Assembly (NCBI GenBank): GCA_916610825.1
Contig: OU744454.1
Coordinates: 8,868,922 to 8,932,921, forward strand
Direction: 5' to 3'
DNA: 64,000 bases
DNA from: Haliclystus octoradiatus
Taxonomy: Eukaryota; Cnidaria; Staurozoa; Stauromedusae; Haliclystidae
Both the position numbers and the translations under genes were made by a program. Shown piece by piece: positions 1-60,800 of the stretch. The notes beneath the pieces are model-generated. The model did no database searches and was not told the origin of the DNA. It was given only the letters and a program-made list of their open reading frames with translations. The stretch's first letter is position 1. The number at the start of each line of letters is the position of its first letter.

Positions 1-1735
1 AAAGGACCAAAAACGGACCAAAAGCAATATCTTCTTCTCTTGGGAACTAAAAATTACAAAAAACAATGCCCAGTTCCCTTGCTAATTGAAAATTATAAAA
101 AACAATGCTAAATTCTCTTGGGAAATGAAAATTTCAAAAACAATGCCTTTTTCTTAAGGGTATTCAAAAAAAACAAAAATATTGCCTAATTCTCAAGGAA
201 TTTGAAAACGACCAAAAACGGACCAAAAACAATACCTACTTCCTTTGGGAACCAAAAATGACCACAAAAATGCCCATTGCTCTTGAGAAATGAAAATTAC
301 AAGAAACAGATCCCAATTCACTTGGGAATTGAAAATTATAAAAAACAATGCAAAATTCCCAAGAGAATTAAAAAAGACCAAAAACAATGCCTAATTCTCA
401 AGTCATTTTAAAATTACTAAAAATGGACCAAAAACAAACCAAAAACAATACCTAATTCCCTTGGGAAATAAAAATTACAAAAAACAATTTCCAGTTCCCT
501 TGTAAATTAAAACTTATAAAAAACAATGCAAAAATCCCTTGAGAATTGAAAACTTCAAAAAACAATCCTTTTTTTCCAAGGGAATTGATAAAGACCAAAA
601 ACAATGCCTAATTCTCAAGGAATTTTCAAACGACCAAAAATGGACAAAAAACGGACCAAAAAAATACCTAATTCCCTTGAGAAATTAAAATTACAAAAAA
701 CAATGCCCAGTTCCCTTGTAAATTGAAAATTATAAAAAACAATGCAAAAATCCCTCAAGAATTGAAAATTTCAAAAAACATTACTTAATTCCCTTGGGAA
801 TTTAAAATTACAAAAAACAACGCCTAATTCTCAAGGAGTTTTAAAACGACCAAAAATGGACCCAAAACGGACCAAAAACAATACCTTATTCCCTTGGGAA
901 ATAAAAATTACAAAAAACAATGCCCAGTTCTCTTGTAAATTAAAAATTATAAAAAACAATGCCAAAATCTATTGAGAAATGGAAATTTCAAAACACAATC
1001 CTTTTTTTCCAAGGGAATTGATAAAGACCAAAAACAATGCCTAATTCTCAAGGAAATTTAAAATGACCAAAAATGGACAAAAAACGGACCAAAAAAATAC
1101 CTAATTCCCTTGAGAAATTAAAATTACAAAAAACAATGCCCAGTTCTCTTGTAAATTAAAAATTATGAAACACAATGCCAAAACCCCTTAAGAATTGAAA
1201 ATTGCAAAAAACAATGCCTTTTTTCCAAAAGAACTGATAAAGACCAAAAACAATGCCTAATTCTCGAAGAACTTTGAAACGACCAAAAAAGGACCAAAAA
1301 CGGACCAAAAGCAATATCTTATTCTCTTGGGAACTAAAAATTACAAAAAACAATGCCCAGTTCCCTTGCTAATTGAAAATTATAAAAAACAATGCTAAAT
1401 TCTCTTGGGAAATGAAAATTTCAAAAAACAATGCCTTTTTCTTAAGGGTATTCAAAAAAAACAAAATATTGCCTAATTCTCAAGGAATTTGAAAACGACC
1501 AAAAACGGACCAAAAACAATACCTACTTCCTTTGGGAACCAAAAATGACTACAAAAATGCCCATTGCTGTTGAGAAATGAAAATTACAAGAAACAGATCC
1601 CAATTCACTTGGGAATTGAAAATTATAAAAAACAATGCAAAATTCCCAAGAGATTTGAAAAAGACCAAAAACAATGCCTAATTCTTAAGTCATTTAAAAA
1701 GACCAAAAATGGACCAAAAACGAACCAAAAACAAT
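1..1735 (+). repeat. Left-edge duplicated satellite segment, 1287-bp offset
   Basis: The first roughly 440 bases recur from 1288 with an offset of 1287 bp and few substitutions (for example TTGCTCTTGAG near 289 against TTGCTGTTGAG near 1564). The copies part where one continues into AATTCCC and the other into ATTTTCTCGGG. A segment of the same family at 193-387 also recurs at 4576-4770, 4383 bp away. The leftmost 7 kb is a patchwork without one dominant higher-order period. Confidence 0.6.
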
Positions 1736-4700
1736 ACCTAATTTTCTCGGGACTCAAAAGTGACCACAAAAATGCCCATTTCTCTTGTGAAATGAAAATT
1801 ACAAAAAACAATTCACATTTCACTTGGGAATTGAAAATTACAAAAAACAATGCTTTTTTCTTAAGGGTATTAAAAAAAACCAAAATAATGCCTAATTCTC
1901 AAGGAATTTGAAAACGACCAAAAATTGACCAAAAATATTACGTAATTCTTTTGGGGATAAAAAATTACAAAAAACAATGCTCAGCTCCCTTGAGAATTGA
2001 AAATTATCAAAAACAACGCCAAATTCCCTTGAGAATTGAAAATTTTCAAAACAATGCCAAATTCACTTGGGAATTGAAAATTCAAAAAACAATGCCTTTT
2101 CTCAAGGGAATTGATAAAGACCAAAAACAATGCCTAATTCTCAAGGAATTTTAAAGCGACCAAAAATGGACCAAAAGCGGACCAAAACAATACATAATTC
2201 CCTTGGGAAATAGAAAGTACAAAAAACAATGCCCAGTTCCCTTGTAAACTAAAACTTATAAAAAACAATGCCAAATTCCCTTGTGAATTGAAAATTATTA
2301 AAAACAACGCCAAATTCCCTTGGGAATTGCAAATTTTCAAAACAATGCAAAATTCCTCCATGGGAAAATAAAATTTTAAAAAACAATGCCAAATTGACTT
2401 TTGAAGTGAAAATTCCAAAAAACATTGCCTCTTTCCTAAGAAAATTGAAAAAGACCAAAAACAATACCTTATTCTCTTGGGAACTATAAATTACAAAAAA
2501 CAATGCCCAGTTCCCTTGCTAATTGAAAATTATAAAAAACAATGCTAGATTCTCTTGGGAAATGAAAATGTCAAAAAGCAATGCCTTTTTCTTAAGGGTA
2601 TTCAAAAAAACCAAAATAATGCCTAATTCTCAAGGAATTTCAAAACAAGCAAGAACGGACCAAAAACAATACTTAATTCCCTTGGGAATTAATAATTAAA
2701 GAAAACAATGCCATTCTTTGTCAAGGAATTTTAAAACGACCAAAAATGGACCAAAAACGAACCAAAAACAAAACGTAATTCCCTTGCCAAATAAAAATTA
2801 CAAACAACAATGCCCAGTTCCCTTGTAAATTAAAAATTATAAAAAACAATGCCAAAATCTCTTGAGAAATGAAAATTTCAAAACACAATGCCTTTTTTTG
2901 AAGGGAATTGATAAAGACCAACAACAATTCTTAATTCTCGAAGAATTTCAAAACGACCAACAACGGATCAACATCGGATCAAAAACAATACTTAATTCCT
3001 TTTGGAATCAATCATGACCACAAAAATGCCCATTTCTCTTAGGAAATGAAAATTACAAAAAACAATTTCAAATTCACTTGGGTCTTGAGATTTACTAAAA
3101 ACAATGCCCAATTATCTTTAGAATTGAAAATTAAAATATACAATGCCAAATTCCGTTGGGAATTAATAATTACAAAAAGAATACATGATTCACAAGGAAT
3201 TTAAGCACGACCTAAAACGGACCAAAAACGGACCAAAAACAATACTTAATTTTCTCGGGACTCAAAAGTGACCACAAAAATGCCCATTTCTCTTGTGAAA
3301 TGAAAATTACAAAAAACAATTCACATTTCACTTGGGAATTGAAAATTACAAAAAACAATGTTTTTTTCTTAAGGGTATTAAAAAAAACCAAAATAATGCC
3401 TAATTCTCAAGGAATTTGAAAACGACCAAAAATGGACCAAAAATATTACCTAATTCTTTTGGGGATAAAAAATTACAAAAAACAATGCTCAGCTCCCTTG
3501 AGAATTGAAAATTATAAAAAACAACGCCAAATTCCCTTGAGAATTGAAAATTTTCAAAACAATGCCAAATTCCCCCCCATGGGAAATTAAAATTTTAAAA
3601 AACAATCCCAAATTCACTTTTGAAGTGAAAATTTCAAAAAACATTGCCTCTTTCCTAAGAAAATTGAAAAAGACCAAAAACAATACCTTATTCTCTTGGG
3701 AACTAAAAATTACAATAAACAATGCCCAGTTCCCTTGCTAATTGAAAATTATAAAAAACAATGCTAAATTCTCTTGGGAAATGAAAATGTCAAAAAGCAA
3801 TGCCTTTTTCTTAAGGGTATTCAAAAAAACCAAAATAATGCCTAATTCTCAAGGAATTTCAAAACAAGCAAGAACGGACCAAAAACAATACTTAATTCCC
3901 TTGGGAATTAATAATTAAAGAAAACAATGCCATTATTTGTCAAGGAATTTTAAAACGACCAAAAATGGACCAAAAACGAACCAAAAACAAAACGTAATTC
4001 CCTTGCCAAATAAAAATTACAAACAACAATGCCCAGTTCCCTTGTAAATTAAAAAATATGAAACACAATGCCAAAACCCCTTAAGAATTGAAAATTGCAA
4101 AAAACAATGCCTTTTTTCCAAAAGAACTGATAAAGACCAAAAACAATGCCTAATTCTCAAAGAACTTTGAAACGACCAAAAAAGGACCAAAAACAGACCA
4201 AAAGCAAATCCTTATTCTCTTGGGAACTAAAAATTACAAAAAACAATGCCCAGTTCCCTTGCTAATTGAAAATTATAAAAAACAATGCTAAATTCTCTTG
4301 GGAAATGAAAATTTCAAAAAACAATGCCTTTTTCTTAAGGGTATTAAAAAAAAACAAAAAATTGCCTAATTCTCAAGGAATTTGAAAACGACCAAAAACG
4401 GACCAAAAACAATACCTACTTACTTTGGGAACCATAATTGACTACAAAAATGCCCATTGCTCTTGAGAAATGAAAATTACAAGAAACAGATCCCAATTCA
4501 CTTGGGAATTGAAAACTATAAAAAACAATGCCTTTTTCTTAAGGGTATTAAAAAAACCAAAATATTGCCTAATTCTCAAGGAATTTGAAAACGACCAAAA
4601 ACGGACCAAAAACAATACCTACTTCCTTTGGGAACCAAAAATGACCACAAAAATGCCCATTGCTCTTGAGAAATGAAAATTACAAGAAACAGATCCCAAT

Positions 4701-7700
4701 TCACTTGGGAATTGAAAATTATAAAAAACAATGCAAAATTCCCAAGAGAATTGAAAAAGACAAAAAACAATGCCTAATTCTCAAGTCATTTTAAAACGAC
4801 CAAAAATGGACCAAAAACAAACCAAAAACAATACCTAATTCCCTTGAGAAATTAAAATTACAAAAAACAATGCCCAGTTCCATTGTAAATTGAAAATTAT
4901 AAAAAACAATGCCAAAATCCCTCAACAATTGAAAATTTCAAAAAACAATACTTAATTCCCTTGGGAATTAAAAATTACAAAAAACAATGCCTAATTCTCA
5001 AGGAGTTTTAAAACAACCAAAAATGGACCAAAAACGGGCCAAAAACAATACCTAATTCCCTTGGGAAATAAAAATTACAAAAAACAATGCCCAGTTCCCT
5101 TGTAAATTAAAAATTATAAAAAACAATGCCAAAATCTCTTGAGAAATAAAAATTTCAAAAAACAATCCTTTTTTCCAAGGGAATTGATAAAGACCAAAAA
5201 CAATGCCTAATTCTCAAGGAATTTTAAAACGACCAAAAATGGACAAAAAACGGACCAAAAAAATACCTAATTCCCTTGAGAAATTAAAATTACAAAAAAC
5301 AATGCCCAGTTCCCTTGGGAATTGAAAATTACAAAAAACAATGCCTAATTCTCGAAGAATTTTAAAACGACCAAAAATGGACCAAAAACGGACCAAAAAC
5401 AATACCTAATTCTCTTGGGGATAAAAAAATTACAAAAAACAATGCTCAGTTCCCTTGAGAATTGAAAATTATAAAAAACAATGCCCAGTTCCCTTGTAAA
5501 TCAAAACTTATAAAAAACAATGCAAAAATCTCTTGGGAATTGAAAACTTCAAAAAACAATCTTTTTTTTCCAAGGGACTTGATAAAGACCAAAAACAATG
5601 CCTAATTCTCAAAGAACTCTAAAACGACCAAAAATGGACCAAAAACGGACCAAAAACAATACCTAATTCTCTTGGGAAATAAAAATTACAAAAAACAATG
5701 CCCAGTTCCCTTGTAAATTAAAAATTATAAAAAACAATGCCAAAATCCCTTAAGAATTGAAAATTTCAAAAGATAATACTTAATTCCCTTGGGAATTAAA
5801 AATGACAAAAAACAATACCTAATTCTCAAAGAATTTTAAAACGATCAAAGATGGACCAAAAACGGACCAAAAACAATACCTAATTCCCTTGGGAAATAAA
5901 AATTACAAAAAACAATGCCCAGTTCCCTTGTAAATTAAAAATTATAAAAAACAATGCCAAAATCCCTTAAGAATTGGAAATTTCAAAAAACAATACTTAA
6001 TTCCCTTGGGAATTAAAAATTACAAAAAACAATGCCTAATTCTCGAAGAATTTTAAAACGACCAACAACGGATCAACATCGGATCAAAAACAATACTTAA
6101 TTCCTTTTGGAATCAATCATGACCACAAAAATGCCCATTTCTCTTAGGAAATGAAAATTACAAAAAACAATTTCAAATTCACTTGGGTCTTGAGATTTAT
6201 TAAAAACAATGCCCAATTATCTTTAGAATTGAAAATTAAAATATACAATGTTGGGAATTAATAATTACAAAAACAATGCATGATTCACAAGGCATTTTAA
6301 AACGACCAAAAATGGACCAAAAACGAACCAAAAACAAAACGTAATTCCCTTGCCAAATAAAAATTACAAACAACAATGCCCATTTCTCTTAGGAAATGAA
6401 AATTACAAAAAACAATTTCAAATTCACTTGGGTCTTGAGATTTATTAAAAACAATGCCCAATTATCTTTAGAATTGAAAATTAAAATATACAATGTTGGG
6501 AATTAATAATTACAAAAACAATGCATGATTCACAAGTCATTTTAAAACGACCAAAAATGGACAAAAAACAAACCAAAAACAATACCTAATTCCCTTGAGA
6601 AATTAAAATTACAAAAAACAATGCCCAGTTCCCTTGTAAATTGAAAATTATAAAAAACAATGCCAAAATCCCTCAAGAATTGAAAATTTCAAAAAACAAT
6701 ACTTAATTCCCTTGGGAATTAAAAATTACAAAAAACAATGCCTAATTCTCGAAGAATTTTAAAACGACCAAAAACGGACCAAAAACAATACCTAATTACC
6801 TTGGGAAATAAAAATTACAAAAAACAATGCCCAGTTCCCTTGTAAATTGAAATTATAAAAAACAATGCCAAAATCTCTTGAGAAATGAAAATTTCAAAAA
6901 ACAATCCTTTTTTTCCAAGGGAATTGATAAAGACCAAAAACAATGCCTAATTCTCAAGGAATTTTAAAACGACCAAAAATGGACAAAAAACGGACCAAAA
7001 AAATACCTAATTCCCTTGAGAAATTAAAATTACAAAAAACAATGCCGAGTTCCCTTGGGAATTGAAAATTACAAAAAACAATGCCTAATTCTCAAAGAAC
7101 TCTAAAACGACCAAAAATGGACCAAAAACGGACCAAAAACAATACCTAATTCTCTTGGGAAATAAAAATTACAAAAAACAATGCCCAGTTCCCTTGTAAA
7201 TTAAAAATTATAAAAAACAATGCCAAAATCCCTTAAGAATTGAAAATTTCAAAAGATAATACTTAATTCCCTTGGGAATTAAAAATTACAAAAAACAATG
7301 CCTAATTCTCGAAGAATTTTAAAACGACCAAAAATGGACCAAAAACGGACCAAAAACAATACCTAATTCCCTTGGGAAATAAAAATTACAAAAAACAATG
7401 CCCAGTTCCCTTGTAAATTAAAAATTTCAAAACACAATGCCTTTTTTCCAAGGGAATTAATAAAGACCAACAACAATTCCTAATTCTCGAAGAATTTTAA
7501 AACGACCAACAACGGTTCAACATCGGATCAAAAACAATACTTAATTCCTTTTAGAATCAATCATGACCACAAAAATGCCCATTTCTCTTAGGAAATGAAA
7601 ATTACAAAAAACAATTTCAAATTCACTTGGGTCTTGAGATTTACTAAAAACAATGCCCAATTATCTTTAGAATTGAAAATTAAAATATACAATGCCAAAT

Positions 7701-10700
7701 TCCGTTGGGAATTAATAATTACAAAAACAATGCATAATTCACAAGGAATTTAAACACGACCTAAAACGGACCAAAAACGGACCAAAAACAATACCTAATT
7801 TTCTCGGGACTCAAAAGTGACCACAAAAATGCCCATTTCTCTTGTGAAATGAAAATTACAAAAAACATTTCACAATTCACTTGGGAATTGAAAATTACAA
7901 AAAACAATGCTTTTTTCTTAAGGGTATTAAAAAAAACCAAAATAATGCCTAATTCTCAAGGAATTTGAAAATGACCAAAAATGGACCAAAAATATTACCT
8001 AATTCTTTTGGGGATAAAAAATTACAAAAAACAATGCTCAGTTCCCTTGAGAATTGAAAATTATCAAAAACAACGCCAAATTCCCTTGGGAATTGAAAAT
8101 TTTCAAAAACAATGCCAAATTCCCCTATGGGAAATTAAAATTTTAAAAAACAATGCCAAATTCACTTTTGAAGTGAAAATTTCAAAAAACATTGCCTCTT
8201 TCCTAAGAAAATTGAAAAAGGCCAAAAACAATACCTTATTCTCTTGGGAACTAAAAATTACAAAAAACAATGCCCAGTTCCCTTGCTAATTGAAAATTAT
8301 AAAAAACAATGCTAAATTCTCTTGGGAAATGAAAATGTCAAAAAGCAATGCCTTTTTCTTAAGGGTATTCAAAAAAACCAAAATAATTCCTAATTCTCAA
8401 GGAATTTCAAAACAACCAAGAACGGACCAAAAACAATACTTAATTCCCTTGAGAAATTAAAATTACAAAAAACAATGCCCAGCTCCCTTGTAAATTTAAA
8501 ATTATAAAAAACAATGCCAAAATCCCTCAAGAATTGAAAATTTCAAAAAACAATACTTAATTCCATTGGGAATTAAAAATTACAAAAAACAATGCCTAAT
8601 TCTCAAGGAGTTTTAAAACGACCAAAAATGGACCAAAAACGGACCAAAAACAATACCTAATTCCCTTGGGAAATAAAAATTACAAAAAACAATGCCCAGT
8701 TCCCTTGTAAATTAAAAATTTCAAAACACAATGCCTTTTTTCAAAGGGAATTAATAAAGACCAACAACAATTCCTAATTCTTGAAGAATTTTAAAACGAC
8801 CAACAACGGATCAACATCGGATCAAAAACAATACTTAATTCCTTTTAGAATCAATCATGACCACAAAAATGCCCATTTCTCTTAGGAAATGAAAATTACA
8901 AAAAACAATTTCAAATTCACTTGGGTCTTGAGATTTACTAAAAACAATGCCCAATTATCTTTAGAATTGAAAATTAAAATATACAATGCCAAATTCCGTT
9001 GGGAATTAATAATTACAAAAACAATGCATGATTCACAAGGAATTTAAACACGACCTAAAACGGACCGAAAACGGACCAAAAACAATACCTAATTTTCTCG
9101 GGACTCAAAAGTGACCACAAAAATGCCCATTTCTCTTGTGAAATGAAAATTACAAAAAACATTTCACAATTCACTTGGGAATTGAAAATTAAAAAAAACA
9201 ATGCTTTTTTCTTAAGGGTATTAAAAAAAACCAAAATAATGCCTAATTCTCAAGGAATTTTAAAACGACCAAAAATGGACCAAAAATATTACCTAATTCT
9301 TTTGGGGATAAAAAATTACAAAAAACAATGCTCAGTTCCCTTGAGAATTGAAAATTATCAAAAACAACGCCCAGTTCCCTTGTAAATCAAAACTTATAAA
9401 AAACAATGCAAAAATCCCTTGAGAATTGAAAACTTCAAAAAACAATCTTTTTTTTCCAAGGGAGTTGATAAAGACCAAAAACAATGCCTAATTCTCAAAG
9501 AACTCTAAAACGACCAAAAACGGACCAAAAACAATAGCTAATTCCCTTGGGAAATAAAAATTACAAAAAACAATGCCCAGTTTCCTTGTAAATTAAAAAT
9601 TATAAAAAACAATGCCAAAATCCCTTAAGAATTGAAAATTTCAAAAGATAATACTTGATTCCCTAGGGAATTAAAAATTACAAAAAACAATGCCTAATTC
9701 TCGAAGAATTTTAAAACGACCAAAAATGGACCAAAAACGGACCAAAAACAATACCTAATTCCCTTGGGAAATAAAAATTACAAAAAACAATGCCCAGTTC
9801 CCTTGTAAATTAAAAATTTCAAAACACAATGCCTTTTTTCCAAGGGAATTAATAGAGACCAACAACAATTCCTAATTCTCGAAGAATTTTAAAACGACCA
9901 ACAACGGTTCAACATCGGATCAAAAACAATACTTAATTCCTTTTAGAATCAATCATGACCACAAAAATGCCCATTTCTCTTAGGAAATGAAAATTACAAA
10001 ACACAATTTCAAATTCACTTGGGTCTTGAGATTTACTAAAAACAATGCCCAATTATCTTTAGAATTGAAAATTAAAATATACAATGCCAAATTCCGTTGG
10101 GAATTAATAATTACAAAAACAATGCATAATTCACAAGGAATTTAAACACGACCTAAAACGGACCAAAAACGGACCAAAAACAATACCTAATTTTCTCGGG
10201 ACTCAAAAGTGACCACAAAAATGCCCATTTCTCTTGTGAACTGAAAATTACAAAAAACATTTCACAATTCACTTGGGAATTGAAAATTACAAAAAACAAT
10301 GCTTTTTTCTTAAGGGTATTAAAAAAAACCAAAATAATGCCTAATTCTCAAGGAATTTGAAAACGACCAAAAATGGACCAAAAATATTACCTAATTCTTT
10401 TGGGGATAAAAAATTACAAAAAACAATGCTCAGTTCCCTTGAGAATTGAAAATTATCAAAAACAACGCCAAATTCCCTTGGGAATTGAAAATTTTCAAAA
10501 ACAATGCCAAATTCCCCTATGGGAAATTAAAATTTTAAAAAACAATGCCAAATTCACTTTTGAAGTGAAAATTTCAAAAAACATTGCCTCTTTCCTAAGA
10601 AAATTGAAAAAGGCCAAAAACAATACCTTATTCTCTTGGGAACTAAAAATTACAAAAAACAATGCCCAGTTTTCTTGCTAATTGAAAATTAAAAAAAACA

Positions 10701-12000: not shown

Positions 12001-12216
12001 CAATACCTAATTACCTTGGGAAATAAAAATTACAAAAAACAATGCCCAGTTCCCTTGTAAATTGAAATTATAAAAAACAATGCCAAAATCTCTTGAGAAA
12101 TGAAAATTTCAAAAAACAATCCTTTTTTTCCAAGGGAATTGATAAAGACCAAAAACAATGCCTAATTCTCAAGGAATTTTAAAACGACCAAAAATGGACA
12201 AAAAACGGACCAAAAA
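12001..12216 (+). repeat. Representative five-subunit block of the satellite
   Basis: This block shows the grammar of the array. Subunit a (12001-12039, CAATACC start, right half of the dyad complete) is followed by b (12040-12077, TTCCCTTGTAAATT, right half lost; here 38 bp). Then come c (12078-12116, TCTCTTGAGAAATG), d (12117-12155, starting CAATCC with a T run, then TTCCAAGGGAATTG) and e (12156-12216). Subunits a, c and d are exactly 39 bp. Subunit e is 61 bp, which is 39 plus two extra 11-bp words of the form GACCAAAAAYG. The same a-b-c-d-e order recurs throughout, with subunits skipped or duplicated. Confidence 0.85.
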
Positions 12217-12479: not shown

Positions 12480-12495
12480 AATTCCCTTGGGAATT
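12480..12495. promoter_or_regulatory. Example of the satellite dyad, a match to the COE/EBF palindrome
   Basis: The 16 bases AATTCCCTTGGGAATT form a 7-bp inverted repeat around a TT centre. They contain ATTCCCNNGGGAAT, the recognition palindrome known for the COE (Collier/Olf/EBF) family of metazoan homodimeric factors. An identical copy lies at 787-802, and many others occur across the array, along with half-degraded forms such as TCTCTTGGGAA and TTCCCTTGTAA. The motif match is seen directly. Binding in the cell is inference, since satellite DNA may be inaccessible. The same dyad could also form a short hairpin. Confidence 0.5.
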
Positions 12496-33099: not shown

Positions 33100-36000
33100 C
33101 CCAGTTCCCTTGTAAATCAAAACCTATAAAAAACAATGCAAAAATCTCTTGGGAATTGAAAACTTCAAAAAACAATCTTTTTTTTCCAAGGGAGTTTATA
33201 AAGACCAAAAACAATGCCTAATTCTCAAAAAACTCTAAAACGACCAAAAATGGACCAAAAACGGACCAAAAACAATACCTGATTCTCTTGGGAAATAAAA
33301 ATTACAAAAAACAATGCCCAGTTCCCTTGTAAATTAAAAATTATAAAAAACAATGCCAAAATCCCTTGAGAATTGAAAATTTCAAGAGATAATACTTAAG
33401 TCCCTTGGGAATTAAAAATTACAAAAAACAATGCCTAATTCTCAAAGAATTTTGAAACGACCAAAAATGGACCAAAAACGGACCAAAAAAATACCTAATT
33501 CCCTTGAGAAATTAAAATTACAAAAAACAATGCCCAGTTCCCTTGTAAATTAAAAATTATAAAATACAATGCCAAAATCCCTTGAGAATTGAAAATTTCA
33601 AAAAACAATACTTAATTCCCTTGGGAATTAAAAATTACAAAAAACAATGCCTAATTCTTGAAGAATTTTAAAACGACCAACAACGGATCAACATCGGATC
33701 AAAAACAATACTTATTTCCTTTTGGAATCAATCATGACCACAAAAATGCCCATTTCTCTTATGAAATGAAAATTACAAAAAACAATTTCAAATTCACTTG
33801 GGTCTTGAGATTTACTAAAAACAATGCCCAATTATCTTTAGAATTGAAAATTAAAATATACAATGCCAAATTCCGTTGGGAATTAATAATTACAAAAACA
33901 ATGCATGATTCACAAGGAATTTAAAAACGACCTAAAATGGACCAAAAACGAACCAAAAACAATACCTAATTTCCTCGGGACTCAAAAGTGACCACAAAAA
34001 TGCCCATTTCTCTTGTGAAATGAAAAATACAAAAAACAATTCACAATTAACTTCGGAATTGAAAATTACAAAAAACAATGCTTTTTTGTTAAGGGTATTA
34101 AAAAAACCAAAATAATGCCTAATTCTCAAGGAATTTGAAAACGTCCAAAAATGGACCAAAAATATTACCTAATTCTCTTGGGGATAAAAAATTACAAAAA
34201 ACAACGCCAAATTCCCTTGGGAATTGAAAATTTTCAAAAACAATGCCAAATTCCCCCATTGAAATTAAAATTTTAAAAAACAATGCCAAATTCACTTTTG
34301 AAGTGAAAATTTCAAAAAAACATTGCCTCTTTCCTAAGAAAATTGAAAAAGGCCAAAAACAATACCTTATTCTCTTGGGAACTAAAAATTACAAAAAACA
34401 ATCCCCAGTTCCCTTGCTAATTGAAAAATATAAAAAACAATGCTAAATTCTCTTGGGAAATGAAAATTTCAAAAAGCAATGCCTTTTTCTTAAGGGTATT
34501 CAAAAAAAACAAAATAATGCCTAATTCTCAAGGAATTTCAAAACAACCAAGAACGGATCAAAAACAATACTTAATTCTCTAGGGAATTAATAATTAAAGA
34601 AAACAATGCCATTATTTGTCAAGGAATCTCAAAACGACCAAAAATGGACCAAAAACGAACCAAAAACAAAACGTAATTCCCTTGCCAAATAAAAATTACA
34701 AACAACAATGCCCAGTTCCCTTGTAAATTAAAAATTATGAAACACAATGCCAAAACCCCTTAAGAATTGAAAATTGCAAAAAACAATGCCTTTTTTCCAA
34801 AAGAATTGATAAAGACCAAAAACAATGCCTAATTCTCGAAGAACTTTGAAACGACCAAAAAAGGACCAAAAACGGATCAAAAGCAATACCTTATTCTCTT
34901 GGGAACTAAAAATTACAAAAAACAATGCCCAGTTCCCTTGCTAATTGAAAATTATAAAAAACAATGCTAAATTCTCTTGGGAAATGAAAATTTCAAAAAC
35001 AATGATTTTTCTTAAGGGTATTCAAAAAAAACAAAAATATTGCCTAATTCTCAAGGAATTGGAAAACGACCAAAAACGGACCAAAAACAATACCTACTTC
35101 CTTTGGGAACCAAAAATGACCACAAAAATGCCCATTGCTCTTGAGAAATGAAAATTACAAGAAACAGCTCCCAATTCACTTGGGAATTGAAAATTATAAA
35201 AAACAATGCAAAATTCCCAAGAGAATTGAAAAAGACCAAAAACAATGCCTAATTCTCAAGTCATTTTAAAATTACCAAAAATGGACCAAAAACAAACCAA
35301 AAACAATACCTAATTCCCTTGGGAAATAAAAATTACAAAAAACAATGCCCAGTTCCCTTGTAAATTAAAACTTATAAAAAACAATGCAAAAATCCCTTGA
35401 GAATTGAAAACTTCAAAAAACAATCCTTTTTTTCCAAGGGAATTGATAAAGACCAAAAACAATGCCTAATCCTCAAGGAATTTTAAAACGACCAAAAATG
35501 GACAAAAAACGGACCAGAAAAATACCTAATTCCCTTGAGAAATTAAAATTACAAAAAACAATGCCCAGTTTCCTTGTAAATTGAAAATTATAAAAAACAA
35601 TGCCAAAATCCCTCAAGAATTGAAAATTTCAAAAAACAATACTTAATTCCCTTGGGAAAATAAAATTACAAAAAACAATGCCCAGTTCCCTTGGGAATTG
35701 AAAATTACAAAAAACAATGCCTAAGTCTCGAAGAATATTAAAACGACCAAAAATGGACCAAAAACGGACCAAAAACAATACCTAATTCTCTTGGGGATAA
35801 AAAATTACAAAAAACAATGCTCAGTTCCCTTGAGAATTGAAAATTATAAAAAACAATGCCCAGTTCCCTTGTAAATCAAAACTTATAAAAAACAATGCAA
35901 AATTCCCAAGAGAATTGAAAAAGACCAAAAACAATGCCTAATTCTCAAGTCATTTTAAAATTACCAAAAATGGACCAAAAACAAACCAAAAACAATACCT

Positions 36001-39520: not shown

Positions 39521-39522
39521 TG

Positions 39523-45500: not shown

Positions 45501-48500
45501 CCTTGGGAATTAAAAATTACAAAAAACAATGCCTAATTCTCAAGGAGTTTTAAAACGACCAAAAATGGACCAAAAACGGACCAAAAACAATACCTAATTC
45601 CCTTGGGAAATAAAAATGACAAAAAACAATGCCCAGTTCCCTTGTAAATTAAGAATTATAAAAAACAATGCCAAAATATCTTGAGAAATGAAAATTTCAA
45701 AAAACAATCCTTTTTTTCCAAGGGAATTGATAAAGACCAAAAACAATGCCCAATTCTCAAGGAAATTTAAAACGACCAAAAATGGACAAAAAACGGATCA
45801 AAAAAATACCTAATTCCCTTGAGAAATTAAAATTACAAAAAACAATGCCCAGTTCCCTTGGGAATTGAAAATTACAAAAAACAATGCCTAATTCTCGAAG
45901 AATTTTAAAACAACCAAAAATGGACCAAAAACGGACCAAAAACAATACCTACTTCCTTTGGGAACCAAAAATAACCACAAAAATGCCCATTGCTCTTGAG
46001 AAATGAAAATTATAAGAAACAGATCGCAATTAACTTGAGAATTGAAAATTATAAAAAACAATGCAAAATTCCAAAGAGAATTGAAAAAGACCAAAAACAA
46101 TGCGTAATTCTTAAGTCATTTTAAAACGACCAAAAATGGACCAAAAACGGACCAAAAACAATACCTAATTCTCTTGGGAAATAAAAATTACAAAAAACAA
46201 TGCCCAGTTCCCTTGTAAATTTAAACTTATAAAAAACAATGCAAAAATCCCTTGAAAATTGAAAACTTCAAAAAACAATCCTTTTTTTCCAAGGGAATTG
46301 ATAAAGAACAAAAACAATGCCTATTTCTAAAGAAATTTGAAAACGATAAAAAACGGACAAACATCGGATCAAAAACAATACTTAATTCCTTTTGGAATCA
46401 ATAATGACCACAAAAATGCCCATTTCACTTGGGAATTGAAAATTACAAAAAACAATGCCCAGTTCCCTTGTAAATTGAAATTATAAAAAACAATGCCAAA
46501 ATCTCTCGAGAAATGAAAATTTCAAAAAACAATCCTTTTTTTCCAAGGGAATTGATAAAGACCAAAAGCAATGCCTAATTCTCAAGGAATTTTAAAACGA
46601 CCAAAAATGGACAAAAAACGGATCAAAAAATACCTAATTCCCTTGAGAAATTAAAATTACAAAAAACAATGCCCAGTTCCCTTGGGAATTGAAAATTACA
46701 AAAAACAATGCTTAATTCTCGAAGAATTTTAAAACGACCAACAACGGATCAACATCGGATCAAAAAAAAAACTTAATGCCTTTTGGAATCAATAATGACC
46801 ACAAAAATGCCCATTTCTCTTAGAAAATGAAAATTACAAAAAACAATTCCAAATTCACTTGCGTCTTGAGATTTACTAAAAACAATGCCCAATTATCTTT
46901 AGAATTGAAAATTAAAATATACAATGCCAAATTCCGTTGGGAATTAATAATTACAAAAACAATGCATGATTCACAAGGAATTTAAAAACGACCTAAAATG
47001 GACCAAAAACGGACCAAAAACAATACCTAATTTCCTCGGGACTCAAAAGTGACCTCAAAAATGCACATTTCTCTTGTGAAATGAAAATTACAAAAAACAA
47101 TTCACAATTCACTTCGGAATTGAAAATTACAAAAAACAATGCTTTTTTGTTCAGGGTATTAAAAAAACCAAAATAATGCCTAATTCTCAAGGAATTTGAA
47201 AACGTCCAAAAATGGACCAAAAATATTACCTAATTCTCTTGGGGATAAAAAATTACAAAAAACAATGCCCAGTTCACTTGCTAATTGAAAAATATAAAAA
47301 ACAATGCTAAATTCTCTTGGGAAATGAAAATGTCAAAAAGCAATGCCTTTTTCTTAAGGGTATTCAAAAAAACCAAAATAATGCCTAATTCTCAAGGAAT
47401 TTCAAAACAACCAAGAACGGATCAAAAACAATACTTAATTCTCTTGGGAATTAATAATTAAAGAAAACAATGCCATTATTTGTCAAGGAATCTCAAAACG
47501 ACCAAAAATGGACCAAAAACGAACCAAAAGCAATACCTTATTCTCTTGGGAACTAAAAATTACAAAAAACAATGCCCAGTTCCCTTGCTAATTGAAAATT
47601 ATAAAAAACAATGCTAAATTCTCTTGGGAAATGAAAATTTCAAAAACAATGCCTTTTTCTTAAGGGTATTCAAAAAAAACAAAAATATTGCCTAATACTC
47701 AAGGAATTTGAAAACCACCAAAAACGGACCAAAAACAATACCTACTTCCTTTGGGAACCAAAAATGACCACAAAAATGCCCATTGCTCTTGAGAAATGAA
47801 AATTACAAGAAACAGATCCCAATTCACTTGGGAATTGAAAATTATAAAAAACAATGCAAAATTCCCAAGAGAATTGAAAAAGACCAAAAACAATGCCTAA
47901 TTCTCAAGTCATTTTAAAATTACCAAAAATGGACCAAAAACAAACCAAAAACAATACCTAATTCCCTTGGGAAATAAAAATTACAAAAAACAATGCCCAG
48001 TTCCCTTGTAAATTAAAACTTATAAAAAACAATGCAAAAATCCCTTGAGAATTGAAAACTTCAAAAAACAATCCTTTTTTTCCAAGGGAATTGATAAAGA
48101 CCAAAAACAATGCCTAATTCTCAAGGAATTTTAAAACGACCAAAAATGGACAAAAAACGGACCAAAAAAATACCTAATTCCCTTGAGAAATTAAAATTAC
48201 AAAAAACAATGCCCAGTTCCCTTGGGAATTGAAAATTACAAAAAACAATCCCTAATTCTCGAAGAATTTTAAAACGACCAAAAATGGACCAAAAACGGAC
48301 CAAAAACAATACCTACTTCCTTTGGGAACCAAAAATGACCACAAAAATGCCCATTGCTCTTGAGAAATGAAAATTATAAGAAACAGATTGCAATTAACTT
48401 GAGAATTGAAAATTATAAAAAACAATGCAAAATTCCAAAGAGAATTGAAAAAGACCAAAAACAATGCGTAATTCTTAAGTCATTTTAAAACGACCAAAAA

Positions 48501-49940
48501 TGGACAAAAAACGGATCAAAAAATACCTAATTCCCTTGAGAAATTAAAATTACAAAAAACAATGCCCAGTTCCCTTGGGAATTGAAAATTACAAAAAACA
48601 ATGCTTAATTCTCGAAGAATTTTAAAACGACCAACAACGGATCAACATCGGATCAAAAAAAAAACTTAATGCCTTTTGGAATCAATAATGACCACAAAAA
48701 TGCCCATTTCTCTTAGAAAATGAAAATTACAAAAAACAATTCCAAATTCACTTGCGTCTTGAGATTTACTAAAAACAATGCCCAATTATCTTTAGAATTG
48801 AAAATTAAAATATACAATGCCAAATTCCGTTGGGAATTAATAATTACAAAAACAATGCATGATTCACAAGGAATTTAAAAACGACCTAAAATGGACCAAA
48901 AACGGACCAAAAACAATACCTAATTTCCTCGGGACTCAAAAGTGACCTCAAAAATGCACATTTCTCTTGTGAAATGAAAATTACAAAAAACAATTCACAA
49001 TTCACTTCGGAATTGAAAATTACAAAAAACAATGCTTTTTTGTTCAGGGTATTAAAAAAACCAAAATAATGCCTAATTCTCAAGGAATTTGAAAACGTCC
49101 AAAAATGGACCAAAAATATTACCTAATTCTCTTGGGGATAAAAAATTACAAAAAACAATGCCCAGTTCACTTGCTAATTGAAAAATATAAAAAACAATGC
49201 TAAATTCTCTTGGGAAATGAAAATGTCAAAAAGCAATGCCTTTTTCTTAAGGGTATTCAAAAAAACCAAAATAATGCCTAATTCTCAAGGAATTTCAAAA
49301 CAACCAAGAACGGATCAAAAACAATACTTAATTCTCTTGGGAATTAATAATTAAAGAAAACAATGCCATTATTTGTCAAGGAATCTCAAAACGACCAAAA
49401 ATGGACCAAAAACGAACCAAAAGCAATACCTTATTCTCTTGGGAACTAAAAATTACAAAAAACAATGCCCAGTTCCCTTGCTAATTGAAAATTATAAAAA
49501 ACAATGCTAAATTCTCTTGGGAAATGAAAATTTCAAAAACAATGCCTTTTTCTTAAGGGTATTCAAAAAAAACAAAAATATTGCCTAATACTCAAGGAAT
49601 TTGAAAACCACCAAAAACGGACCAAAAACAATACCTACTTCCTTTGGGAACCAAAAATGACCACAAAAATGCCCATTGCTCTTGAGAAATGAAAATTACA
49701 AGAAACAGATCCCAATTCACTTGGGAATTGAAAATTATAAAAAACAATGCAAAATTCCCAAGAGAATTGAAAAAGACCAAAAACAATGCCTAATTCTCAA
49801 GTCATTTTAAAATTACCAAAAATGGACCAAAAACAAACCAAAAACAATACCTAATTCCCTTGGGAAATAAAAATTACAAAAAACAATGCCCAGTTCCCTT
49901 GTAAATTAAAACTTATAAAAAACAATGCAAAAATCCCTTG
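39523..49940 (+). repeat. Higher-order repeat of about 5.21 kb, two copies
   Basis: Markers at 39912 and 45119, 40387 and 45594, and 40550 and 45757 are 5207 bp apart; 41784 and 46993, and 42490 and 47699, are 5209 bp apart. Rare variants are shared, such as CACATCTCTTG-like changes in the divergent segment and GATCGCAATTAACTTGAG. An internal family also repeats at 2117 bp (43771 and 45888), so the 5.2-kb unit is itself composite. Confidence 0.75.
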
Positions 49941-50385
49941 AGAATTGAAAACTTCAAAAAACAATCCTTTTTTTCCAAGGGAATTGATAAAGACCAAAAA
50001 CAATGCCTAATTCTCAAGGAATTTTAAAACGACCAAAAATGGACAAAAAACGGACCAAAAAAATACCTAATTCCCTTGAGAAATTAAAATTACAAAAAAC
50101 AATGCCCAGTTCCCTTGGGAATTGAAAATTACAAAAAACAATCCCTAATTCTCGAAGAATTTTAAAACGACCAAAAATGGACCAAAAACGGACCAAAAAC
50201 AATACCTACTTCCTTTGGGAACCAAAAATGACCACAAAAATGCCCATTGCTCTTGAGAAATGAAAATTATAAGAAACAGATTGCAATTAACTTGAGAATT
50301 GAAAATTATAAAAAACAATGCAAAATTCCAAAGAGAATTGAAAAAGACCAAAAACAATGCGTAATTCTTAAGTCATTTTAAAACG
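46600..50385 (+). repeat. 1893-bp tandem higher-order repeat, two near-identical copies
   Basis: Markers at 46993 and 48886, 47699 and 49592, 48121 and 50014, and 48252 and 50145 all differ by exactly 1893 bp. Copy-specific variants are shared, for example TTGTTCAGGG in place of TTGTTAAGGG and CAATCCCTAATTC. The first copy starts near 46600, the junction is near 48490 and the second copy loses identity at about 50399. This is probably the youngest amplification in the window. Confidence 0.85.
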
Positions 50386-53300
50386 ACCAAAAATGGACCA
50401 AAAACGGACCAAAAACAATACCTAATTCTCTTGGGAAATAAAAATTACAAAAAACAATGCCCAGTTCCCTTGTAAATTTAAACTTATAAAAAACAATGCA
50501 AAAATCCCTTGAAAATTGAAAACTTCAAAAAACAATCCTTTTTTTCCAAGGGAATTGATAAAGAACAAAAACAATGCCTATTTCTAAAGAAATTTGAAAA
50601 CGATAAAAAACGGACAAACATCGGATCAAAAACAATACTTACTTCATTTTGGAATCAATAATGACCACAAAAATGACCATTTCACTTGGGAATTGAAAAT
50701 TACAAAAAACAATGCCCAGTTCCCTTGTAAATTGAAATTATAAAAAACAATGCCAAAATCTCTTGAGAAATGAAAATTTCAAAAAACAATCCTTTTTTTC
50801 CAAGGGAATTGATAAAGACCAAAAGCAATGCCTAATTCTCAAGGAATTTTAAAACGACCAAAAATGAACAAAAAACGGACCAAAAAATACCTAATTCCCT
50901 TGAGAAATTAAAATTACAAAAAACAATGCCCAGTTCCCTTGGGAATTGAAAATTACAAAAAACAATGCTTAATTCTCGAAGAATTTTAAAACGACCAACA
51001 ACGGATCAACATCGGATCAAAAAAAAAACTTAATGCCTTTTGGAATCAATAATGACCACAAAAATGCCCATTTCTCTTAGAAAATGAAAATTACAAAAAA
51101 CAATTCCAAATTCACTTGGGTCTTGAGATTTACTAAAAACAATGCCCAATTATCTTTAGAATTGAAAATTAAAATATACAATGCCAAATTCCGTTGGGAA
51201 TTAATAATTACAAAAACAATGCATGATTCACAAGGAATTTAAAAACGACCTAAAATGGACCAAAAACGGACCAAAAACAATACCTAATTTCCTCGGGACT
51301 CAAAAGTGACCTCAAAAATGCACATTTCTCTTGTGAAATGAAAATTACAAAAAACAATTCACAATTCACTTCGGAATTGAAAATTACAAAAAACAATGCT
51401 TTTTTCTTAAGGGTATTAAAAAATACCAAAATAATGCCTAATTCTCAAGGAATTTGAAAACGTTCAAAAATGGACCAAAAATATTGCCTAATTCTCAAGG
51501 AATTTGAAAATGTCCAAAAATGGACCAAAAATATTACCTAATTCTCTTGGGGATAAAAAATTACAAAAAACAACGCCAAATTCCCTTGGGAATTGAAAAA
51601 TTTTCAAAAACAATGCCAAATTCACTTTTGAAGTGAAAATTTCAAAAAACATTGCCTCTTTCCTAAGAAAATTGAAAAAGGCCAAAAACAATACCTTATT
51701 CTCTTGGGAACTAAAAATTACAAAAAACAATGCCCAGTTCCCTTGCTAATTGAAAAATATAAAAAACAATGCTAAATTCTCTTGGGAAATGAAAATGTCA
51801 AAAAGCAATGCCTTTTTCTTAAGGGTATTCAAAAAAACCAAAATAATGCCTAATTCTCAAGGAATTTCAAAACAACCAAGAACGGATCAAAAACAATACT
51901 TAATTCTATTGGGAATTAATAATTAAAGAAAACAATGCCGTTATTTGTCAAGGAATCTCAAAAAGACCAAAAATGGACCAAAAACGAACCAAAAACAAAA
52001 CGTAATTCCCTTGCCAAATAAAAATTACAAACAACAATGCCCAGTTCCCTTGTAAATTAAAAATTATGAAACACAATGCCAAAACCCCTTAAGAATTGAA
52101 AATTGCAAAAAACAATGCCTTTTTTCCAAAAGAATTGATAAAGACCAAAAACAATGCCTAATTCTCGAAGAACTTTGAAACGACCAAAAAAGGACCAAAA
52201 CCGGACCAAAAGCAATACCTTATTCTCTTGGGAACTAAAAATTACAAAAAACAATGCCCAGTTCCCTTGGTAATTGAAAATTATAAAAAACAATGCTAAA
52301 TTCTCTTGGGAAATGAAAATCTCAAAAACAATGCCTTTTTCTTAAGGGTATTCAAAAAAAACAAAAATATTGCCTAATACTCAAGGAATTTGAAAACCAC
52401 CAAAAACGGACCAAAAACAATACCTACTTCCTTTGGGAACCAAAAATGACCACAAAAATGCCCATTGCTCTTGAGAAATGAAAATTACAAGAAACAGATC
52501 CCAATTCACTTGGGAATTGAAAATTATAAAAAACAATGCAAAATTCCCAAGAGAATTGAAAAAGACCAAAAACAATGCCTAATTCTCAAGTCATTTTAAA
52601 ATTACCAAAAATGGACCAAAAACAAACCAAAAACAATACCTAATTCCCTTGGGAAATAAAAATTACAAAAAACAATGCCCAGTTCCCTTGTAAATTAAAA
52701 CTTATAAAAAACAATGCAAAACTCCCTTGAGAATTGAAAACTTCAAAAAACAATCCTTTTTTTCCAAGGGAATTGATAAAGACCAAAAACAATGCCTAAT
52801 TCTCAAGGAATTTTAAAACGACCAAAAATGGACAAAAAACGGACCAAAAAAATACCTAATTCCCTTGAGAAATTAAAATTACAAAAAACAATGCCCAGTT
52901 CCCTTGTAAATTGAAAATCATAAAAAACAATGCCAAAATCCCTCAAGAATTGGAAATTTCAAAAAACAATACTTAATTTCCTTAGTAATTTAAAATTACA
53001 AAAAACAATGCCTAATTCTCAAGGAGTTTTAAAACGACCAAAAATGGACCAAAAACGGACCAAAAACAATACCTAATTCCCTTGGGAAATAAAAATTACA
53101 AAAAACAATGCCCAGTTCCCTTGTAAATTAAAAATTATAAAAAACAATGCCAAAATCTCTTGAGAAATGAAAATTTCAAAAAACAATCCTTTTTTTCCAA
53201 GGGAATTGATAAAGACCAAAAACAATGCCCAATTCTCAAGGAAATTTAAAACGACCAAAAATGGACAAAAAACGGACCAAAAAAAACCTAATTCCCTTGA

Positions 53301-56300
53301 GAAATTAAAATTACAAAAAACAATGCCCAGTTCCCTTGGGAATTGAAAATTACAAAAAACAATCCCTAATTCTCGAAGAATTTTAAAACGACCAAAAATG
53401 GACCAAAAACGGACCAAAAACAATACCTACTTCCTTTGGGAACCAAAAATGACCACAAAAATGCCAATTACTCTTGAGAAATGAAAATTATAAGAAACAG
53501 ATTGCAATTAACTTGAGAATTGAAAATTATAAAAAACAATGCAAAATTCCAAAGAGAATTGAAAAAGACCAAAAACAATGCGTAAGTCTTAAGTCATTTT
53601 AAAACGACCAAAAATGGACCAAAAACGGACCAAAAACAATACCTAATTCTCTTGGGAAATAAAAATTACAAAAAACAATGCCCAGTTCCCTTGTAAATTT
53701 AAACTTATAAAAAACAATGCAAAAATCCCTTGAAAATTGAAAACTTCAAAAAACAATCCTTTTTTTCCAAGGGAATTGATAAAGAACAAAAACAATGCCT
53801 ATTTCTAAAGAAATTTGAAAACGATAAAAAACGGACAAACATCGGATCAAAAACAATACTTACTTCATTTTGGAATCAATAATGACCACAAAAATGACCA
53901 TTTCACTTGGGAATTGAAAATTACAAAAAACAATGCCCAGTTCCCTTGTAAATTGAAATTATAAAAAATAATGCCAAAATCTCTTGAGAAATGAAAATTT
54001 CAAAAAACAATCCTTTTTTTCCAAGGGAATTGATAAAGACCAAAAGCAATGCCTAATTCTCAAGGAATTTTAAAACGACCAAAAATGGACAAAAAACGGA
54101 CCAAAAAATACCTAATTCCCTTGAGAAAATAAAATTACAAAAAACAATGCCCAGTTCCCTTGGGAATTGAAAATTACAAAAAACAATGCTTAATTCTCGA
54201 AGAATTTTAAAACGACCAACAACGGATCAACATCGGATCAAAAAAAAAACTTAATGCCTTTTGGAATCAATAATGACCACAAAAATGCCCATTTCTCTTA
54301 GAAAATGAAAATTACAAAAAACAATTCCAAATTCACTTGGGTCTTGAGATTTACTAAAAACAATGCCCAATTATCTTTAGAATTGAAAATTAAAATATAC
54401 AATGCCAAATTCCGTTGGGAATTGAAAATTACAAAAAACAATGCCCAGTTCCCTTGTAAATTAAAAATTATAAAAAACAATGCCAAAATCTCTTGAGAAA
54501 TGAAAATTTCAAAACACAATGCCTTTTTTCCAAGGGAATTGATAAAGACCAACAACAATTCCTAATTCTCGAAGAATTTCAAAACGACCAACAACGGATC
54601 AACATCGGATCAAAAACAATACTTAATGCCTTTTGGAATCAATAATGACCACAAAAATGCCCATTTCTCTTAGAAAATGAAAATTACAAAAAACAATTCC
54701 AAATTCACTTGGGTCTTGAGATTTACTAAAAACAATGCCCAATTATCTTTAGAATTGAAAATTAAAATATACAATGCCAAATTCCGTTGGGAATTAATAA
54801 TTACAAAAACAATGCATGATTCACAAGGAATTTAAAAAAGACCTAAAATGGACCAAAAACGGACCAAAAACAATACCTAATTTCCTCGGGACTCAAAAGT
54901 GACCTCAAAAATGCACATTTCTCTTGTGAAATGAAAATTACAAAAAACAATTCACAATTCACTTCGGAATTGAAAATTACAAAAAACAATGCTTTTTTCT
55001 TAAGGGTATTAAAAAGAACCAAAATAATGCCTAATTCTCAAGGAATTTGAAAACGTTCAAAAATGGACCAAAAATATTGCCTAATTCTCAAGGAATTTGA
55101 AAACGACCAAAAACGGACCAAAAACAATACCTACTTCCTTTGGGAACCAAAAATGACCACAAAAATGCCCATTGCTCTTGAGAAATGAAAATTATAAGAA
55201 ACAGATCGCAATTAACTTGAGAATTGAAAATTATAAAAAACAATGCAAAATTCCAAAGAGAATTGAAAAAGACCAAAAACAATGCGTAATTCTTAAGTCA
55301 TTTTAAAACGACCAAAAATGGACCAAAAACGGACCAAAAACAATACCTACTTCCTTTGGGAACCAAAAATGATCACAAAAATGCCCATTGCTCTTGATAA
55401 ATGAAAATTATAAGAAACAGATCGCAATTAACTTGAGAATTGAAACTTATAAAAAACAATGCAAAAATCTCTTAAGAATTGAAAACTTCAAAAAACAATC
55501 TTTTTTTTTCAAAGGAGTTGATAAAGACCAAAAACAATGCCTAATTCTCAAAGAACTCTAAAACGACCAAAAATGGACCAAAAACGGACCAAAAACAATA
55601 CCTGATTCTCTTGGGAAATAAAAATTACAAAAAACGATGCCCAGTTCCCTTTATAAATTAAAAATTATAAAAAACAATGCCAAAATCCCTTAAGAATTGA
55701 AAATTTCAAAATATAATACTCAATTCCCCTGGGAATTAAAAATTACAAAAAACAATGCCTAATTCTCGAAGAATTTTAAAACGACCAAAAATGGACCAAA
55801 AACAGACCAAAAACAATACCTAATTCCCTTGGGAAATAAAAATTACAAAAAACAATACCCAGTTCCCTTGTAAATTAAAAATTATAAAAAACAATGCCAA
55901 AATCTCTTGAGAAATGAAAATTTCAAAAAACAATCCTTTTTTTCCAAGGGAATTGATAAAGACCAAAAACAATGCCTAATTCTCAAGGAATTTTATAACG
56001 ACCAAAAATGGACAAAAAACGGATCAAAAAAATACCTAATTCCCTTGAGAAATTAAAATTACAAAAAACAATGCCCAGTTCCCTTGGGAATTGAAAATTA
56101 CAAAAAACAATGCCCAAGTCTCGAAGAATTTTAAAACGACCAAAAATGGACCAAAAACGGACCAAAAACAATACCTAATTCTCTTGGGGATAAAAAATTA
56201 CAAAAAACAATGCTCAGTTCCCTTGAGAATTGAAAATTATAAAAAACAATGCCCAGTTTCCTTGTAAATCAAAACTTATAAAAAACCATGCAAAAATCTC

Positions 56301-57196
56301 TTAAGAATTGAAAACTTCAAAAAACAATCTTTTTTTTTCAAGGGAGTTTATAAAGACCAACAACAATTCCTAATTCTCGAAGAATTTCAAAACGACCAAC
56401 AACGGATCAACATCGGATCAAAAACAATACTTAATGCCTTTTGGAATCAATAATGACCACAAAAATGCCCATTTCTCTTAGAAAATGAAAATTACAAAAA
56501 ACAATTCCAAATTCACTTGGGTCTTGAGATTTACTAAAAACAATGCCCAATTATCTTTAGAATTGAAAATTAAAATATACAATGCCAAATTCCGTTGGGA
56601 ATTAATAATTACAAAAACAATGCATGATTCACAAGGAATTTAAAAACGACCTAAAATGGACCAAAAACGGACCAAAAACAATACCTAATTTCCTCGGGAC
56701 TCAAAAGTGACCTCAAAAATGCACATTTCTCTTGTGAAATGAAAATTACAAAAAACAATTCACAATTCACTTCGGAATTGAAAATTACAAAAAACAATGC
56801 TTTTTTCTTAAGGGTATTAAAAAAAACCAAAATAATGCCTAATTCTCAAGGAATTTGAAAACGTTCAAAAATGGACCAAAAATATTGCCTAATTCTCAAG
56901 GAATTTGAAAACGACCAAAAACGGACCAAAAACAATACCTACTTCCTTTGGGAACCAAAAATGACCACAAAAATGCCCATTGCTCTTGAGAAATGAAAAT
57001 TATAAGAAACAGATCGCAATTAACTTGAGAATTGAAAATTATAAAAAACAATGCAAAATTCCAAAGAGAATTGAAAAAGACCAAAAACAATGCGTAATTC
57101 TTAAGTCATTTTAAAACGACCAAAAATGGACCAAAAACGGACCAAAAACAATACCTAATCCTCTTGGGAAATAAAAATTACAAAAAACAATGCCCA

Positions 57197-60461: not shown

Positions 60462-60509
60462 CTTGCTCCCTGTTATGCCGGCTAGAAGGTTATATCCTTG
60501 CAAATTAGG

Positions 60510-60740: not shown

Positions 60741-60800
60741 TTTGCCGCCGAAAAAGATTTGACATGCACTCACACATGTCAAATTATCAGCGAACAGTTG

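What the first reader, a model, noticed from the sequence alone, without database searches (positions are those of the whole stretch)
1..57196. Satellite saturated with a perfect COE/EBF binding palindrome
Seen: AATTCCCTTGGGAATT and close forms recur several times per kilobase over 57 kb (for example 787-802 and 12480-12495), alongside many half-sites. Known: COE/EBF factors bind ATTCCCNNGGGAAT as homodimers. Inference: the array could act as a large sink or nuclear hub for a COE factor, or could be silenced so that it does not. A satellite built around a developmental regulator's exact consensus is unusual and, to my knowledge, undescribed for this repeat.
Basis: partly seen in the sequence, partly recalled or inferred. 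Interest (0 to 1): 0.72.

Follow-up and report, generated by a model that had tools for sequence, protein, structure and literature searches.

The report
Jellyfish mid-chromosome satellite with COE sites
A tandem-repeat DNA family in the middle of several stalked-jellyfish chromosomes carries tens of thousands of copies of the sequence that the developmental regulator COE/EBF binds in other animals; in this window most copies are decayed, so an accidental, amplified match is likelier than a working one, but the numbers make it worth a binding test.

Summary
The motif is real, but the window is a weak example of it. In 1-57196 the exact 16-mer occurs 45 times (0.79/kb; shuffles 0) and TTCCCNNGGGAA 111 times (shuffles 0.23). 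It is not a perfect palindrome (centre TT), and the array is not saturated: 110 of 1,188 complete-core monomers carry TTCCCTTGGGAA. The box is less conserved than the A-rich linker (0.795 against 0.910), and 36 of 45 exact sites fall into four monomer types.

The genome matches Haliclystus octoradiatus jrHalOcto1.1. It holds 35,802 ATTCCCNNGGGAAT sites, reversed control 0. Mapped ones cluster in single blocks, 43-59% along five of nine chromosomes, and on unplaced scaffolds; by extrapolation about 40 lie elsewhere. One COE locus with conserved DNA-binding exons was found.

Best reading: a (peri)centromere-like satellite superfamily (39- and 59-bp units) whose ancestral unit held the box, spread by array amplification. 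COE could probably bind intact boxes on naked DNA; nothing here shows selection for binding. A COE sink is not excluded, and is most plausible for the 59-bp arrays outside this window.

The parts
1..57196 (+). Part of a 39-bp-unit satellite array with higher-order periods of 216-217 and 433 bp, one orientation throughout; it continues upstream of the window and resumes about 2.2 kb beyond the window end
   Evidence: (AAACAATGC 588 on + and 0 on -)
787..802 (+). Exact AATTCCCTTGGGAATT box (one of 45 in the array)
12480..12495 (+). Exact AATTCCCTTGGGAATT box (one of 45 in the array)
57197..64000 (.). Non-satellite island inside the chromosome-9 block (higher G+C, no box, no AAACAATGC linker motif seen); the array resumes at about C11:8,935,169
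   Evidence: (0 exact boxes in the flank)

Best explanation
This is the chromosome-9 array of a satellite DNA superfamily that forms one mid-chromosome block on at least five of the nine chromosomes of the stalked jellyfish Haliclystus octoradiatus, most likely pericentromeric or centromeric heterochromatin (inferred from position alone). The ancestral unit held an inverted-repeat box identical to the COE/EBF consensus beside an A-rich AAACAATGC linker. Unequal exchange and higher-order-repeat amplification multiplied the unit by chromosome. In the window's 39-bp array the box has mostly decayed, and a few lineages that still carry it were re-amplified (shown: distribution, lineage structure, decay). 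The box is abundant because the satellite is abundant. The animal's COE would probably bind intact boxes on naked DNA (inferred from domain conservation), but in vivo the arrays are most likely silent and the match has no maintained COE function (inferred).
For: Box less conserved than linker: 0.795 vs 0.910 identity; exact 12-mers 107 TTCCCTTGGGAA vs 423 AAAAAACAATGC. Intact cores as expected from independent columns: TCCCnnGGGA 122 observed vs 132 expected, TTCCCnnGGGAA 120 vs 100, of 1,188. 36 of 45 exact boxes fall in four 42-mer types. 71.5% of array positions lie in a recurring 60-mer. 87 of 87 hits of the commonest box type are on C11, all + strand. Clustered mid-chromosome hits on C1, C4, C5, C6, C11. 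The 59-bp unit is the 39-bp unit plus a 20-bp insert.
Against: The box is one of two stretches shared nearly intact by the 39- and 59-bp units (14 of 16 positions; the linker AAAACAATGC is the other), which is what a bound element would also show. TTCCCnnGGGAA is slightly above the independence expectation (120 vs 100). In two C1 samples the box is marginally more conserved than the rest (0.965 vs 0.955; 0.957 vs 0.944). Chromatin state and centromere position were not tested. The C4, C5 and C6 blocks are known only from motif hits; their sequence was not read.
Confidence: 0.67

Rival explanations
1. COE sink or hub: the arrays, chiefly the box-dense 59-bp ones, bind COE in COE-expressing cells, buffering its free concentration or building a nuclear body, much as HSF1 gathers on human satellite III.
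For: 35,802 perfect and 48,296 relaxed (TCCCNNGGGA) sites in the genome; extrapolation puts about 40 and about 1,500 of them outside satellites. One COE locus with conserved DNA-binding exons. About 10 perfect sites per kb in two C1 samples.
Against: Decay and lack of arm covariation in the window. Blocks in C2 and C10 use unrelated satellites. A SOX-type word is even more frequent. No binding data.
Confidence: 0.13
2. The box is the binding site of another satellite-binding protein, in the way the CENP-B box is in mammals, and the COE match is incidental.
For: Box and AAACAATGC linker are the shared parts of the 39- and 59-bp units; blocks are mid-chromosome.
Against: The CENP-B core pattern TTCGnnnnAnnCGGG is absent from the window array, L024 and L029 (0 in each). 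The box decays in the window, and C2 and C10 samples lack it.
Confidence: 0.12
3. The box matters as a dyad (hairpin or cruciform), not as a sequence, as proposed for centromeres lacking CENP-B boxes.
For: C2 and C10 central satellites are rich in inverted repeats (arm 7: 5x and 38x shuffles; only 550 and 750 bases tested, 20 shuffles). On C1 a higher-order repeat carries TACCC-GGGTA, a symmetric double change.
Against: The first 20 kb of the window array shows no excess of inverted repeats (1.08x at arm 5, 0.88x at arm 7), and the 59-bp samples (1.40-1.53x) do not exceed ordinary genomic stretches (1.24-3.69x). Arms in the window pair less than shuffled arms (3.22 vs 3.40 of 5).
Confidence: 0.08

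Closest known systems
Human satellite III and HSF1 (passages of PMC9324158)
   Same: Pericentromeric tandem repeat carrying sites of one transcription factor, able to gather it
   Different: Binding is shown there and untested here; unrelated sequence; HSF1 is a stress factor, COE a developmental one
Mouse major satellite with PAX3/PAX9/FOXD3 (passages of PMC9324158)
   Same: Transcription factors act on a pericentromeric satellite
   Different: There the factors are reported to regulate satellite transcription; no such evidence here
CENP-B-box satellites (alpha and minor satellite; passages of PMC8122249)
   Same: Mid-block satellite with a short protein-site-like box and higher-order repeats
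   Different: CENP-B core pattern absent; centromere function unknown
Tribolium madens macro-dyad satellites (passages of PMC13081366)
   Same: Large central satellite blocks that change orientation (here C1 and C10)
   Different: Unrelated sequence; orientation switches here were not checked on reads and could be scaffolding effects

Membership tests
Satellite DNA with higher-order repeats | Long head-to-tail array of related monomers | tested here: met
   39-bp units over 57 kb, periods 216-217 and 433
Satellite DNA with higher-order repeats | Chromosome-specific homogenised variants | tested here: met
   87 of 87 hits of one 42-mer on C11; 14 of 14 hits of a C2 unit on C2
COE/EBF binding site | Match to ATTCCCNNGGGAAT | tested here: met
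   47 in the window array; 35,802 genome-wide
COE/EBF binding site | Bound by COE | not testable with these tools
   Needs gel shift or CUT&RUN
COE/EBF binding site | Site maintained by selection | tested here: not met
   In the window: no clear excess of intact cores over independence, box less conserved than linker. For the 59-bp arrays two samples show only a marginal difference, which is inconclusive
CENP-B-box satellite | CENP-B core TTCGnnnnAnnCGGG (core pattern recalled; full box in passages of PMC8122249) | tested here: not met
   0 in window array, L024, L029 and the C2 and C10 samples
Centromeric satellite | One block near mid-chromosome | tested here: inconclusive
   Blocks at 43-59% on C1, C4, C5, C6, C11; C2 and C10 have other satellites there; none found in the samples of C7 and C8
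Centromeric satellite | CENP-A chromatin or primary constriction | not testable with these tools
   No chromatin or cytology data
Dyad-rich centromeric satellite | Excess of short inverted repeats | tested here: not met
   First 20 kb of the window array 1.08x (arm 5) and 0.88x (arm 7) of shuffles

The most novel reading that the evidence does not exclude
Over 99% of all perfect COE/EBF sites of an animal genome sit in mid-chromosome satellites, and its COE is physically coupled to them: the arrays buffer COE or draw it to (peri)centromeric chromatin, tying a developmental regulator to chromosome architecture.
Probability: 0.13. Interest if true: 0.82.

Novelty: new member of a known kind. Interest (0 to 1): 0.46.

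Why it matters
If COE binds the arrays, this would be a natural case in which one developmental regulator has its best sites almost wholly in satellite DNA, a clean system to ask whether repeat arrays titrate transcription factors. If it does not bind, the case shows how a genome keeps tens of thousands of perfect sites away from a factor. Either way it gives a first partial map of chromosome-specific central satellites for a staurozoan; the listings of searches, and passages of the medusozoan genome review PMC9112765, showed no earlier one.

Tried and rejected
Rejected: 'saturated' and 'perfect palindrome'; selection for intact boxes in the window; compensatory arm changes in the window; inverted-repeat enrichment of the window, tested on its first 20 kb; a CENP-B box. 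The two longest open frames of the island gave no credible Pfam family (one match at E 0.0049 and 17.1 bits, below its cut-off of 25; the other none). A two-box pattern with a variable gap, meant to sample array positions sparsely, gave 2,971 matches; the first 100 listed were all on C1, so it did not map the genome. (ATTCCCATGGGAAT, 3,504 sites) likewise listed only C1. Sampling of C7 (20 stretches, two of them placed at known motif sites) and C8 (15 stretches) showed neither the linker word nor an array. The listings of paper searches showed no title on COE/EBF sites in satellite DNA; this does not prove that none exists.
Full report
Where the window lies. It is G000:C11:8868922-8932921 of a 261,861,806-base genome in 33 contigs. 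C33 (18,316 bases; first 10 kb read) is a mitochondrial genome: its frames look like a family-B polymerase, cox1, cox2, atp6, cox3, nad2 and nad5 (names are my reading), with two tRNAs found, a medusozoan layout (recalled). The nine longest contigs (C1 39,977,743; C2 38,981,262; C4 35,873,919; C5 28,991,210; C6 27,810,455; C7 26,960,693; C8 21,348,345; C10 20,733,292; C11 16,713,648) match the nine chromosomes of Haliclystus octoradiatus jrHalOcto1.1, exactly so for the longest, N50 and N90 lengths (section 'Genome sequence report' of PMC9975415, read). C11 is chromosome 9.

The observation. Against 30 dinucleotide shuffles of window 1-57196: AATTCCCTTGGGAATT 45 vs 0, ATTCCCNNGGGAAT 47 vs 0.03, TTCCCNNGGGAA 111 vs 0.23, TCCCNNGGGA 113 vs 0.8. 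The motif is real, but the exact form is 0.79 per kb, not several per kb. Its centre TT breaks the symmetry, and the AA-centred 16-mer is absent from the array. Cores number 7-14 in each 5 kb of the first 55 kb.

Anatomy. A wrap-around alignment to a 39-bp unit (AATTCCCTTGGGAATTGAAAATTACAAAAAACAATGCCT) gave 1,605 monomer pieces, 1,188 of them with a complete 12-column core; the other 417 were left out of core counts. Mean identity is 0.795 in the core and 0.910 in linker columns 27-38. Of the 39 ten-column windows the highest is AAAAACAATG (0.923) and the lowest lies over the right arm of the box (0.745). Exact copies of AAAAAACAATGC number 423, of TTCCCTTGGGAA 107. There are 132 different cores, TTCCCTTGGGAA being the commonest (110 of 1,188). 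Shifts of 216-217 and 433 bp stand out after 39, and 71.5% of positions lie in a recurring 60-mer. The 45 exact boxes with flanks form 13 types of 42 bases, four of which hold 36 (19, 7, 6 and 4): they are mostly copies of copies.

Is the box kept? If columns were independent, 99.7 of 1,188 cores would be TTCCCnnGGGAA and 132.4 TCCCnnGGGA; observed are 120 and 122. The arms of one monomer match at 3.22 of 5 positions, against 3.40 +/- 0.017 in 500 shuffles of arms between monomers; fully palindromic arms are 121 against 149 +/- 9.6. So the window array gives no sign that dyad or site is maintained; the excess of the longer core (120 vs 100) is the one hint the other way. In the first 20 kb of the array, inverted repeats are 1.08x (arm 5) and 0.88x (arm 7) of shuffles.

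Genome-wide. ATTCCCTTGGGAAT occurs 15,221 times forward and 16,301 reverse. ATTCCCNNGGGAAT occurs at 35,802 sites, reversed control 0. TCCCNNGGGA occurs at 48,296 sites, reversed control 640. Before the C1 block (first 20.6 Mb) there are 3 ATTCCCNNGGGAAT sites, which extrapolates to about 40 in the genome outside satellites. The first 8.78 Mb of C1 hold 50 TCCCNNGGGA sites, or about 1,500 genome-wide, so about 97% of even the relaxed sites would be satellite. These extrapolations rest on part of one chromosome. Complete lists of rarer centres agree: centres of two G/C bases, 9 sites, 2 in arrays and 7 in DNA without the linker word; centre GT/AC, 60 sites, all in the mid-chromosome clusters or on unplaced C13 and C15 (C13 is satellite in its first 300 bases, and C15 was not read); centre CA/TG, 36 sites, 33 in clusters and 3 elsewhere on C4 and C11.

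Blocks. C1 about 20.6-21.9 of 40.0 Mb, with a non-satellite stretch at 21.0; C4 15.5-16.3 of 35.9; C5 16.2-16.5 of 29.0; C6 16.28-16.38 of 27.8; C11 8.80-9.15 of 16.7. All lie at 43-59% of chromosome length. The C4, C5 and C6 blocks are known only from clustered motif hits (three hits for C6); I did not read their sequence, and the list is cut within C5. The commonest box type of the window has 87 hits, all on C11 and all + strand. On C1 the unit is 59 bp: the 39-bp unit plus a 20-bp insert. Two C1 samples hold the exact 14-mer in its main orientation 99 times in about 169 units (L024) and 87 times in about 152 (L029), about 10 per kb. There the box is only marginally more conserved than the rest (0.965 vs 0.955; 0.957 vs 0.944). 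C1 also carries a longer relative (unit about 117 bp, my estimate) in which AAACAATGCCCAATTCTC precedes a CTATAGAG-type core, so the linker is kept where the box is not. The middles of C2 (18.92-19.76 Mb) and C10 (11.1-11.35 Mb) hold other satellites, without the box in the samples read. Samples of C7 (20) and C8 (15) showed no block. Array orientation differs between 20.7-20.8 and 21.2-21.5 Mb on C1 and between 11.1-11.2 and 11.35 Mb on C10.

COE. The family PF16422 (COE DNA-binding domain) matches five exon-sized stretches at one place, C8:20,979,428-20,980,574. Frames there include VYEGQDKNPQMCRVLLTHEFMC, SRCCENKSCGNRNETPSDPVIADR, KCNQNCLKNAGNPKEMRRFQV and FVHNNSKHGRR, and pieces that I read as IPT and helix-loop-helix (these two labels were not tested). 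Four pieces searched apart each find transcription factor COE1 first (3mln, 3lyr, 3mlp; best E 1.4e-12 to 1.7e-4; one search also lists two unrelated weak matches). The consensus ATTCCCNNGGGAAT, the fly in vivo motif CCCnnGGGA and the single COE gene of invertebrates come from passages of PMC4512700. That this COE binds intact boxes on naked DNA is likely, not tested.

Reading. The evidence favours an ordinary satellite history, an ancestral unit with the box amplified chromosome by chromosome, over a maintained COE array in this window. A COE sink or hub stays possible, chiefly for the 59-bp arrays, where intact boxes are about twelve times denser than here. It deserves a binding test because satellites seem to hold nearly all perfect sites of the genome. 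Nearest known kinds are satellites on which transcription factors act (HSF1 on satellite III; PAX3, PAX9 and FOXD3 on mouse major satellite; passages of PMC9324158) and CENP-B-box satellites (passages of PMC8122249; the CENP-B core is absent here). A caution: AACAATG, a SOX-type site (recalled), occurs 608 times in the window array and 157 and 140 times in L024 and L029 against 120 and 107 COE cores.

Limits. Motif searches list only the first 100 places, so per-chromosome counts are incomplete.

Noticed in passing
G000:C2:18.92-19.76 Mb (L066, L067, L095): A different satellite with AGTCT...AGACT inverted repeats fills the sampled middle of chromosome 2; a 32-base word of it has 14 hits, all on C2.
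   Followed up: partly
G000:C10:11.1-11.35 Mb (L093, L114, L115): Another unrelated satellite (CAGACGTCTAGAC type) very rich in short inverted repeats, with opposite orientation at 11.1-11.2 and 11.35 Mb.
   Followed up: partly
G000:C1:20.7-21.5 Mb (L048, L049, L051, L052): The 59-bp family points opposite ways on the two sides of a non-satellite stretch at 21.0 Mb, a possible macro-dyad like those reported for Tribolium; could be a scaffolding effect.
   Followed up: partly
G000:C1:20.66-20.82 Mb: A higher-order repeat contains TACCC-AA-GGGTA in place of TTCCC-AA-GGGAA, a symmetric double change that keeps the dyad.
   Followed up: no
window 63326-64000: A 179-bp tandem repeat (3.8 copies, 97% matches) that runs on past the window end.
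   Followed up: no
window 58658-59523: A 358-bp tandem repeat, 2.4 copies; 358 is twice 179, relation not tested.
   Followed up: no
L045 (G000:C13:1-300): Unplaced 912-kb scaffold C13 begins with a diverged relative of the 59-bp unit.
   Followed up: no
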